Position numbers and translations under genes: made by a program. A stretch of 52,707 bases of DNA, from the NCBI GenBank assembly GCA_009861545.1, contig VXME01000157.1:18735-71441 (forward strand), read 5' to 3'. Positions within the stretch are counted from its first letter, which is position 1. Every line of letters begins with the position of its first letter. A model generated the notes under the pieces. That model searched no databases and was not told where the DNA came from. It saw nothing but the letters and a program-made list of their open reading frames with translations. This DNA comes from Acidobacteriota bacterium. GTDB taxonomy: Bacteria > Acidobacteriota > Vicinamibacteria > Vicinamibacterales > UBA8438. This document shows, one piece after another, positions 49,762 through 52,707 of this stretch.

Positions 49762-51198
49762 ATGGCCGGCATGCTGACGGCGGTCATCGTCTACATGTCG
49801 GTGCTGGTGCTGGTCGGCGCCTGGCGCAGTCGCCGCGTCCGGACCGGCGACGATTTCCTGGTCGCCGGGCGGCGGCTGCCGGCGCGCGTGCTCGTCTTCA
49901 CGCTGCTCGCCACCTGGATCGGCTCCGGCAGTCTGTTCGGCGGGGCCGGGCTGGGCTATCGTTCCGGCTTCTCCGCGCTGTGGCAGTCGGCCGGCGCGTG
50001 GGTGGGCATCGCCCTCGTCTATTTCATCGCCCCGCGCGTGCGCCGCATCGCGCAGTACACGGTGCCCGACATCCTCGAGCTGCGCTACGGGCCGGCCGCG
50101 CGCGTGCTCGGGACGCTGACCACCGTGCTGGCCTACGCCACCATCGCGGCGTACCAGTTCCGCGGCGGCGGTCGCCTGCTGGCTCTGGTGGCCGGGGTCG
50201 ATCCGGATACCGGCGCCCTGATCACGGCCGTGTTCTGCATCCTCTTCACGTCGCTCGCCGGCATGCTGTCGATCGCCTACCTGGACGTCGGCAACGGCCT
50301 GGTGATGACCGTTGCGGTGATGTTCGGCGTCGCGTTCCTGATCGGCGACGCGGGAGGCCTCTCGGCTTCGCTCGCGGCCCTGGAGCCGCACCAGGTGTCG
50401 CTGTTCGGGGACATGGGCGCGCAGGCGGCGTTCGCTCTGTTTCTGCCGACGATGTTCCTGCTGCTCGGCGAAGCCAACATGTACCAGAAGTTCTTTTCGG
50501 CGCGGGACGAGCGCGCGGCGCGCCTGGCCGTCGTCGGCTGGATCGCCGGCACGATCGTCGTCGAGACCCTGATCGATTCGATCGGCATCTTCGGCAGCCT
50601 GTCCCTCGGCGGACTCGGTGTGGCGGAATCGGAGGAGATAGTCATCCGCGTCGCCACCGACGCGCTGCCGCCGGTGCTCGGCGTGCTGTTGGTCTGCGGC
50701 GCCGCGGCGATCGTCGTCTCCACCGCGAACAGCTTCCTGCTGACGCCGTCGACGAACCTGATCCGCGACGTCTATCAGCGCTTCGTCAACCCCGCCGTCA
50801 CGGATCGGCAGGTGGTGCTCTACACGCGCCTCATCGTGGTCGCGGTCGGCGCTCTCGGTTATGTCGCCGGAAGTTTCTTCCCGACCATTCTCGCGATGGC
50901 GCTCTGGGCCTACACGATGTACGGGGCCGGCATCACGCCCGCGCTCCTCGGCGCGCTGCTGTGGAAGCGGGCGACGCGGGCGGGGGGCGTCGCGTCCATC
51001 CTGGCCGGCATGCTCACGACGCTCGTCTGGGAGATCGTCGGCCTGGCGCGTGCCGTCGACGGGAATCCGGAGTACCTCTTCGGTTGGCAGACCGCCTACC
51101 CGGCGCTCGCTCTGTCCATCGCGACCCTCGTGGTCGTCAGTCTCGCGACCCCGCCTCCCACCGCCGCGGAGGTCGAGTTGCGACCCGCCGGGCCATGA
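49762..51198 (+). CDS. Sodium:solute symporter (SSS family)
   Basis: 478 residues with about 13 membrane segments. SSS signatures include the first-helix region RRVRTGDDFLVAGRRLPAR, ATWIGSGSLFGGAGLGYRSG (Na+-site area), DILELRYGPAARVLG and QFRGGGRLL. The substrate cannot be assigned; SSS members carry sugars, amino acids, vitamins or choline-type solutes. Its stop overlaps the radical SAM gene by ATGA, so the two proteins may act in one pathway. Confidence 0.9.
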   Translation: MAGMLTAVIVYMSVLVLVGAWRSRRVRTGDDFLVAGRRLPARVLVFTLLATWIGSGSLFGGAGLGYRSGFSALWQSAGAWVGIALVYFIAPRVRRIAQYTVPDILELRYGPAARVLGTLTTVLAYATIAAYQFRGGGRLLALVAGVDPDTGALITAVFCILFTSLAGMLSIAYLDVGNGLVMTVAVMFGVAFLIGDAGGLSASLAALEPHQVSLFGDMGAQAAFALFLPTMFLLLGEANMYQKFFSARDERAARLAVVGWIAGTIVVETLIDSIGIFGSLSLGGLGVAESEEIVIRVATDALPPVLGVLLVCGAAAIVVSTANSFLLTPSTNLIRDVYQRFVNPAVTDRQVVLYTRLIVVAVGALGYVAGSFFPTILAMALWAYTMYGAGITPALLGALLWKRATRAGGVASILAGMLTTLVWEIVGLARAVDGNPEYLFGWQTAYPALALSIATLVVVSLATPPPTAAEVELRPAGP

Positions 51199-52565
51199 GA
51201 GTCGCTCTCGTCGCCACCTACGAGCTGGGCCGCCAGCCGTTCGGCCTTGCGTCGCCTGCGGCCTGGCTGCGCCGCGCGGGGATGGACGTCGCCTGCCTCG
51301 ACCTGTCGCGCGAGCCGTTCGACGCCGGCGTGGCAGAGGCCGGCCTCGTGGCGTTCCACCTGCCCATGCACACCGCGACGAGGCTCGCGATCCCGGTGAT
51401 GGAGCGCGTCCGACGACTCAATCCGGGCGCCCGTCTGTGCGCCTACGGCCTCTACGCGCCCCTCAACGGCGAGTTCCTCCGCTCGATCGGTGTCGATCAC
51501 GTGCTCGGCGGCGAGTTCGAGGCCGATCTGGTCCGCCTGGCAACCGAGGTCTCGACCGGCGGAGCCGGTTTCGTCCCGGCGTCCGGTCTCCCGCGGCTGG
51601 AGCTGATGCCGCCCTGGCGCGCGGGGTTGCCGCCGCTCGATCGCTACGCGACGCTGCAGCAGGGCGCGGTCCGGAAGATTGCCGGCTATACGGAGGCGAG
51701 CCGTGGCTGCAAGCACGCCTGCCGCCACTGCCCGGTCGTCCCGGTCTACGGCGGCCGATTCCGCGTCGTGAGCCCGGACGTGGTGATCGCCGACGTGGCG
51801 GCGCAGGTGGAGCAGGGAGCGGAGCACGTCACGTTCGGCGATCCGGACTTCTTCAACGGCGTCGGGCACGCCATGCGGGTGGTCGAGGGGATTGCACGAC
51901 GGTTTCCCGGTCTCACCTACGACGTCACGATCAAGGTGGAACACCTGGTCGCCCATGCCGACCTGCTGTCGCGCTTGCGCGAGACCGGCTGCCTCTTCGT
52001 CACCAGCGCCGTCGAGTCGTTCGACGACTCGATCCTGCGCCGTCTGGAAAAGGGCCACACGCGCGACGACGTCGCCCGCGCCGCGGCGCTCTGCCGCACG
52101 GCCGGACTGACCCTGACGCCGACCTTCGTGGCCTTCACGCCGTGGACCACCCTCGACGGCTACCGCCGGATGCTGGCCGAGATCGAAGCGCTCGATCTGG
52201 TCGAGCAGGTCGCCCCGATCCAGCTTGCGCTGCGGCTGCTCGTGACGGCCGGATCCGGGCTGCTCGAGCTGGAGGACCTCCGCGGGTGGATCGGTCCGTT
52301 CGATCGCGAGCTCCTGGTCTACCCGTGGCGGCATCCCGATCCCCGCGTCGACCGGATGGCCGACGACGTGACGGCTCTGGTCGGCCGGCGCCTCACTGCT
52401 TCCCGGCGCGACGTGTTCAACGCCGTGCTGTCGTGCGCACACGAAGGACGCGTCCCGCCACCTGCGTATTCGAGGGCGGCGAGGCGGAGGGCCGAGGTTT
52501 CATACCTGAACGAGCCGTGGTACTGCTGAGTCGAGCCCACGACCGGGCAGGTGGCCCTGGTCTGA
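51195..52565 (+). CDS. B12-binding/radical SAM protein, probable selenoprotein (CUAEP-tail type)
   Basis: Residues 1-130 resemble a cobalamin-binding-type domain. The radical SAM motif is CKHACRHC (C172, C176, C179), followed by HVTFGDPDFFNG. Read to the UGA at 52527-52529 the protein would end ...NEPWYC (444 aa). In frame, the codons after it read Val-Glu-Pro-Thr-Thr-Gly-Gln-Val-Ala-Leu-Val, then UGA at 52563-52565, giving 456 residues with selenocysteine at 445 (CUVEP tail). A SECIS-like hairpin follows at 52541-52562. I recall a family with CUAEP or CCAEP tails. Readthrough is inferred; the substrate is unknown. Confidence 0.75.
52527..52529 (+). other. Candidate selenocysteine UGA codon
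   Basis: TGA directly after the Cys codon (TGC) that ends the PWYC motif, followed by codons for Val-Glu-Pro-Thr. The reading is C-U-V-E-P. A second in-frame TGA (52563-52565) gives the natural end 11 sense codons later. Confidence 0.7.
52541..52562 (+). promoter_or_regulatory. Bacterial SECIS-like hairpin
   Basis: Stem GACCGGGC (52541-52548) pairs with GCCC (52554-52557) and GGTC (52559-52562), with T52558 bulged. The loop is AGGTG (52549-52553). Eight perfect base pairs, one bulged U and a GGU in the loop match the key features of bacterial SECIS elements. The loop begins 19 nt after the UGA, within the usual range. The bulge is on the 3' side, whereas in E. coli fdhF it is on the 5' side. 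Confidence 0.7.
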
Positions 52566-52707
52566 TACCGGCGTGGATCCTCGCTGCTCTGCCGAGGGCT
52601 ATAGCCGTGGGCGCTACCGCGGACGGCGTGACGCCGGCTGCGGGCTAGGAGTCTGCGCCGCAGAACGCAGCGCAGCGAAGTGCCGCGGCGCAGGGTCATG
52701 GAGTGGG
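52566..52707. other. Downstream edge of the window
   Basis: After the presumed end of the radical SAM selenoprotein I see no ribosome-binding site or recognisable gene start. I looked for a selenocysteine tRNA (selC) here because of the neighbour and found no acceptor-stem or T-loop motif. The only structure is the repeat and inverted repeat listed at 52657-52681. Confidence 0.4.
52657..52681 (+). repeat. Intergenic 25-bp repeat, copy 2
   Basis: Same unit as 44536-44560 with two mismatches. Here it lies inside a larger inverted repeat: GCGCCGC (52655-52661) pairs with GCGGCGC (52685-52691). No T-run follows, so a terminator role is not obvious. Confidence 0.5.

What the first reader, a model, noticed from the sequence alone, without database searches (positions are those of the whole stretch)
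51195..52565. Probable selenoprotein: radical SAM enzyme with a Cys-UGA-Val-Glu-Pro tail and a SECIS hairpin
Read to the first UGA the protein ends ...EPWYC, and the codons after the UGA continue in frame as VEPTTGQVALV before a second UGA. A hairpin of eight perfect pairs with one bulged U and an AGGUG loop starts 11 nt after the first UGA, with the loop 19 nt after it. Seen directly: the codons, the hairpin and the CxxxCxxC motif. Established: bacterial SECIS elements lie just 3' of the UGA, have a small GU-containing loop and a bulged U. From memory: a CUAEP/CCAEP-tail radical SAM family exists with Sec or Cys here; the CUVEP variant and the overlap with an SSS symporter may be new. A standard annotation would truncate the tail.
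Basis: partly seen in the sequence, partly recalled or inferred. Interest (0 to 1): 0.88.

Follow-up and report, generated by a model that had tools for sequence, protein, structure and literature searches.

The report
Selenocysteine-tailed radical SAM enzyme
This is very probably a real selenocysteine-containing radical SAM enzyme from an Acidobacteriota genome, read through one UGA codon near its end with the help of an RNA hairpin; it belongs to a family NCBI already names, but its conserved partner gene (an amino-acid ligase) hints at an unstudied small-molecule pathway.

Summary
ORF 51195-52565 is an in-frame UGA gene (Sec445). It matches NCBIfam NF040546, 'CUAEP/CCAEP-tail radical SAM (seleno)protein', at 609 bits (cut-off 500), so the family is known. 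The genome has selA, selB (N-terminal part seen), selD and tRNA-Sec. Of 79 relatives with an assignable codon, 59 have TGA and 20 Cys, all followed by AEP. In TGA forms the hairpin is conserved beyond synonymous-codon expectation (321/360 paired cells against 221, sd 6); Cys forms are near expectation. A covariance model trained without the window finds it at E=1e-12. All 40 TGA-form genomes checked have SelA; 5 of 11 complete Cys forms lack a convincing one. Sec and Cys interchanged at least 8 times on the tree. Two details fail: the bulged U is not a family feature, and CUVEP is a one-base private variant (the 92%-identical relative has CUAEP). Alone, the hairpin folds no better than shuffles. 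Additional: in 61 of 76 relatives the next gene is an ATP-grasp L-amino-acid ligase; the nearest other family is ArsL (arsinothricin synthesis). I propose a two-enzyme pathway making a modified amino acid and joining it into a peptide; that chemistry is inferred, not shown.

The parts
51195..52565 (+). CUAEP/CCAEP-tail radical SAM selenoprotein gene, 456 residues with Sec445, including the final TGA stop
   Evidence: Translation; NF040546 609 bits, cut-off 500; single copy above the cut-off in the genome, with 1 TGA inside
51708..51731 (+). CxxxCxxC motif (C172, C176, C179) for the radical SAM [4Fe-4S] cluster
   Evidence: Sequence; Pfam Radical_SAM 55.6 bits; all three Cys invariant in 38 aligned sequences
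52524..52538 (+). Tail motif codons TGC TGA GTC GAG CCC = Cys-Sec-Val-Glu-Pro; TGA at 52527-52529 is Sec445
   Evidence: relatives have C[U/C]AEP at the same place
52541..52562 (+). SECIS hairpin GACCGGGC-AGGUG-GCCC(U)GGUC, loop 52549-52553
   Evidence: Synonymous-codon null, covariation, independent covariance model 46.4 bits E=1.1e-12
49762..51198 (+). SSF-family sodium:solute symporter gene whose stop overlaps the radical SAM start (ATGA), probably co-transcribed
   Evidence: Pfam SSF 122 bits; a homologous cluster of about 476 aa sits directly upstream on the same strand in 15 relatives

Best explanation
A selenoprotein radical SAM enzyme of the NF040546 family. SelB with Sec-tRNA-Sec reads UGA 52527-52529 as selenocysteine, directed by the hairpin 12-33 nt downstream, giving a C-terminal Cys-Sec-x-Glu-Pro tail (strongly supported by comparison; Sec itself not chemically shown). 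Domain layout: an N-terminal domain resembling B12-binding domains plus a radical SAM core, as in ArsL. Inferred only: the tail Cys-Sec pair, like the RCCLKC tail of ArsL, holds a soft or thiophilic substrate such as a metalloid, or acts as a redox or nucleophilic residue, while SAM is cleaved, yielding a modified amino acid, possibly by 3-amino-3-carboxypropyl transfer as proposed for ArsL. The ATP-grasp L-amino-acid ligase encoded next door in relatives then forms a peptide bond to it, and neighbouring transporters move product or precursor. The stated confidence is for Sec readthrough and family membership; the pathway is about 0.25.
For: Family: NF040546 609 bits; one copy with one TGA. 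Sec machinery: SelA, tRNA-Sec anticodon TCA, SelB N-terminal part 273.6 bits, SelD 294 bits. Sec/Cys pairing: window plus 59 relatives TGA, 20 Cys, all followed by xEP. Coding after the UGA: entropy summed over 10 codons 3.7, 5.2, 11.9 bits at codon positions 1, 2, 3. SECIS: 321/360 paired against 220.7 sd 6.3; Cys forms 56/120 against 50.6 sd 3.2; 95.1% paired, 21 double-change cells against 6.3 shuffled; independent model hit. Co-occurrence: all 40 TGA-form genomes have SelA. Partner: ATP-grasp with LAL_C2 domain adjacent in 61 of 76 loci with enough sequence; own-genome copy near the end of contig C90. ArsL kinship 30% identity over 412 columns; ArsL chemistry from PMC8552651.
Against: Sec content is not measured. 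SelB is seen only as its N-terminal part on a contig. The pathway is inferred: no arsenic genes were found by BLAST near the 80 relatives, which argues against an arsenic product. The tail is poorly placed in the model (pLDDT about 55-76), so contact with the active site is not shown. The ligase is not on the window's contig, and 15 of 76 relatives lack it directly downstream.
Confidence: 0.93

Rival explanations
1. UGA 52527 is the ordinary stop and the protein ends ...EPWYC; the downstream hairpin is chance or a terminator-like structure.
For: The hairpin alone is not unusually stable for its composition. RefSeq annotates a relative that way.
Against: 59 other TGA relatives keep AEP in frame after the UGA with mainly third-position variation; 20 relatives have Cys codons instead; the hairpin exceeds the synonymous-codon null; SelA is present in all 40 TGA-form genomes.
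Confidence: 0.03
2. Pathway rival: an organoarsenical synthase like ArsL, transferring the 3-amino-3-carboxypropyl group of SAM to arsenite held by the Cys-Sec pair.
For: Closest other named family is ArsL. Both tails carry a CC or CU pair near the C-terminus. An ArsL-type cluster on pAACI01 also contains ArsM and an ATP-grasp protein distantly related to the ligase here (25% identity).
Against: No ArsM, ArsR, ArsC, ArsN1, ArsQ or ArsB-type relatives at E<=1e-6 near the 80 relatives; ArsL score 256 bits is far under its 450 cut-off.
Confidence: 0.2
3. Pathway rival: a cobalamin-dependent radical SAM enzyme acting on an amino acid, peptide or other small molecule, with the Sec as a redox or electron-transfer residue.
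For: Weak Pfam B12-binding match, 23.2 bits under the 32.1 cut-off. Foldseek neighbours include TsrM and OxsB.
Against: The best structural match is AprD4, a radical SAM dehydratase; the B12 match is below its cut-off.
Confidence: 0.25

Closest known systems
NCBIfam NF040546, CUAEP/CCAEP-tail radical SAM (seleno)protein
   Same: Full-length match at 609 bits against a 500 cut-off, through the tail (profile 1-467 of 468); Sec or Cys at the same place
   Different: Val instead of Ala after Sec; the only such case among 80 tails read (79 relatives and the window)
ArsL, arsinothricin biosynthesis radical SAM protein (NF040542, RCCLKC tail)
   Same: About 30% identity over 412 columns; radical SAM core; paired cysteines in the C-terminal tail
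   Different: No Sec; the window protein is below the ArsL cut-off (256 against 450 bits); no arsenic genes found near relatives
Other bacterial radical SAM selenoproteins (TIGR04167 rSAM_SeCys, NF045646 TrsS)
   Same: Radical SAM proteins listed as selenoproteins in PMC13188914
   Different: Neither is among the families this protein matches at E<=0.01
AprD4 (PDB 6fd2)
   Same: Best fold match, TM about 0.68-0.70, 20% identity
   Different: Acts on an aminoglycoside precursor; membership not claimed

Membership tests
NF040546 CUAEP/CCAEP-tail radical SAM (seleno)protein | Score above the curated cut-off over the whole length | tested here: met
   609.4 bits against 500, profile 1-467 of 468
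NF040546 CUAEP/CCAEP-tail radical SAM (seleno)protein | C-[U/C]-A-E-P tail | tested here: met
   CUVEP here: Cys, Sec codon, Glu and Pro kept, Ala replaced by Val; relatives C[U/C]AEP
Bacterial selenoprotein | In-frame UGA aligned with Cys in homologues | tested here: met
   20 of 79 assignable relatives have TGC or TGT at this codon
Bacterial selenoprotein | Conserved SECIS hairpin just 3' of the UGA | tested here: met
Bacterial selenoprotein | selA, selB, selC, selD in the genome | tested here: met
   SelB seen only as its N-terminal part near a contig edge
Bacterial selenoprotein | Selenium in the protein | not testable with these tools
   Needs labelling or mass spectrometry
ArsL (NF040542) | Score above the curated cut-off | tested here: not met
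   255.7 bits against 450
ArsL (NF040542) | RCCLKC tail and ars gene neighbourhood | tested here: not met
   Tail is CUVEP; no ars relatives near the 80 loci
Cobalamin-binding radical SAM | B12-binding domain above the Pfam cut-off | tested here: not met
   23.2 bits against 32.1; cobalamin binding itself not testable here

The most novel reading that the evidence does not exclude
The Sec-tailed radical SAM enzyme and its ATP-grasp L-amino-acid ligase form an undescribed biosynthetic unit, widespread in Acidobacteriota, in which a selenol-thiol pair holds a soft substrate while SAM donates a carbon chain; the new amino acid is then joined into a dipeptide.
Probability: 0.25. Interest if true: 0.75.

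Novelty: new member of a known kind. Interest (0 to 1): 0.4.

Why it matters
The family is named in NCBIfam, but I found no paper on its function in the library searched. It offers natural Sec/Cys versions of one enzyme that switched repeatedly, useful for asking why selenium is kept. The conserved ligase partner gives a concrete, testable lead to a small-molecule pathway in hard-to-culture bacteria. A relative in Thermomicrobium roseum DSM 5159, a named strain, is annotated as ending at the UGA, so automated records lose the tail.

Tried and rejected
Rfam SECIS: no match in the scan of the region; the own-genome search with RF00031 rang in no control genome either, so it is uninformative. Single-sequence fold energy: not significant. 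Bulged U as a family feature: rejected, that position pairs in most relatives. CUVEP as a new class: rejected, one of 80 tails. The second tRNA-Sec-like hit, on C158, is tRNA-Ser; the second SelA piece, on C112, is partial and was not pursued. Arsenic link by neighbourhood: not supported. SelA for Thermomicrobium roseum: absent from the megaplasmid; the chromosome was not searched. Two Haft selenoprotein papers cited in PMC13188914 are not held, so whether they discuss this family is unchecked. A last NCBIfam scan failed on coordinates and was not repeated.

Full report
Observation. The protein reads ...EPWYC-UGA-VEPTTGQVALV-UGA, with the first UGA at 52527-52529 and the final stop at 52563-52565. 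The hairpin begins 11 nt after the UGA and its loop 19 nt after it, with eight pairs and one bulged U. Taken alone the hairpin is not remarkable: 95 of 200 shuffles fold as well. Rfam gave no SECIS match there.

Family. The protein matches NCBIfam NF040546 at 609 bits (cut-off 500) over profile positions 1-467 of 468, tail included. The next best family is ArsL, NF040542, at 256 bits (cut-off 450). Pfam finds Radical_SAM (55.6 bits) and a sub-threshold B12-binding match. An AlphaFold2 model of mean pLDDT 90.8 resembles AprD4 and cobalamin radical SAM enzymes. The last 40 or so residues are of lower confidence (about 55-76), so nothing is claimed about tail contacts.

Selenocysteine machinery. 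The window's own genome has SelA (434 bits), SelD (294 bits), a tRNA-Sec with anticodon TCA by ARAGORN and an N-terminal SelB stretch of 273.6 bits near the end of a contig. The C-terminal, SECIS-binding part of SelB was not seen.

Relatives. Of 80 relatives, 59 have TGA and 20 have TGC or TGT at the aligned codon; one (L054) is cut off there. All 79 continue with AEP; the window alone has VEP. Its 92%-identical relative L003 reads GCC where the window reads GTC, so CUVEP is one base change. After the UGA, entropy summed over ten codons is 3.7, 5.2 and 11.9 bits for codon positions 1, 2 and 3, the pattern of translated sequence.

Hairpin. In the family register the stem is six contiguous pairs. 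TGA forms (window included) pair in 321 of 360 cells; re-drawing synonymous codons from each gene's own usage gives 220.7 (sd 6.3, maximum 239 in 1000 draws). Cys forms pair in 56 of 120 against 50.6 (sd 3.2). On 44 TGA tails, 95.1% of cells pair, with 21 cells changed on both sides against 6.3 in shuffles. A covariance model from those 44, without the window or L003, finds the window at 52527-52574 with 46.4 bits, E = 1.1e-12; the next match in the window is at E = 0.34. That score includes coding conservation as well as structure. Most Cys forms score poorly, but L055 and L048 keep a recognisable hairpin, which suggests recent Sec-to-Cys change. A subgroup with a shorter loop (for example L062, L079) still folds a stem at the same place.

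Distribution. In 396 Acidobacteriota genomes, 54 pass the family cut-off. I counted 40 genomes with the TGA form (in two of them the TGA lies on a separate tail fragment) and 11 with a complete Cys form. All 40 have SelA (one as two pieces, G318); of the 11, four have no match and one has only a 24-bit partial match. Fisher p = 0.0002, not corrected for relatedness. On a tree of 80 proteins the Sec/Cys label changes 12 times, at least 8 forced by well-supported branches.

Neighbourhood. Directly downstream on the same strand in 61 of 76 relatives with enough sequence lies an ATP-grasp protein; the two examined in Pfam carry the L-amino-acid ligase C-terminal domain LAL_C2. Fifteen of the 61 are Cys forms. 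The window's contig ends 142 nt after the radical SAM stop. The genome's own ligase, 53% identical to that of L070, starts 281 nt from the end of contig C90, and the sequence before it resembles the L003 intergenic stretch, so the two contigs are probably neighbours; this is inference. Upstream neighbours include a symporter cluster (15 loci on the same strand) and a POT-family peptide transporter cluster (19 loci, seven members examined).

ArsL comparison. ArsL is predicted to move the 3-amino-3-carboxypropyl group of SAM to arsenite (PMC8552651). It shares 30% identity with this protein and ends RCCLKC. One ArsL-type cluster, on plasmid pAACI01, also has an ATP-grasp gene, 25% identical to the L070 ligase. 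But BLAST with ArsC, ArsB-type transporter, ArsR, ArsQ, ArsM and ArsN1 found no relatives near the 80 loci. I therefore treat the paired tail residues as a possible shared way of holding a soft substrate and leave the substrate open.

Annotation. The T. roseum plasmid gene is annotated to end ...LTESWFC, with TGA GCG GAG CCG there in frame; the stretch after the UGA folds to a stem at -19.0 kcal/mol. SelA is not on that megaplasmid.

Confidence. 0.93 is for Sec readthrough and family membership. The pathway proposal is much less certain and is scored under the novel case.

Noticed in passing
L145 5935-7371 (Thermomicrobium roseum plasmid NC_011961.1): Annotated CUAEP/CCAEP-tail gene stops at the UGA; codons after it read AEP, so the deposited protein probably lacks its tail.
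   Followed up: partly
L055 1595-1642 and L048 7339-7386: Cys-form genes that still score 35.8 and 29 bits with the SECIS model: likely fossil hairpins after Sec-to-Cys change.
   Followed up: partly
L003 8887-9183 and 45 other relatives: A Fe(2+) trafficking protein (PF04362) usually lies near the ligase, mostly on the opposite strand; could be simple synteny.
   Followed up: no
L007 4451-5938, L008 2771-4276, L016 4400-5830 and others: POT-family peptide transporters directly upstream in up to 19 relatives, which would fit a dipeptide product.
   Followed up: partly
L002 (G000 contig C112 1836-2210): Second, partial SelA match (80.7 bits, profile 239-366); paralogue, pseudogene or contamination not resolved.
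   Followed up: no
L147 1436-2668 (Alicyclobacillus plasmid pAACI01): ATP-grasp gene in an ArsL/ArsM cluster, suggesting some arsinothricin-type clusters also make a conjugate.
   Followed up: partly
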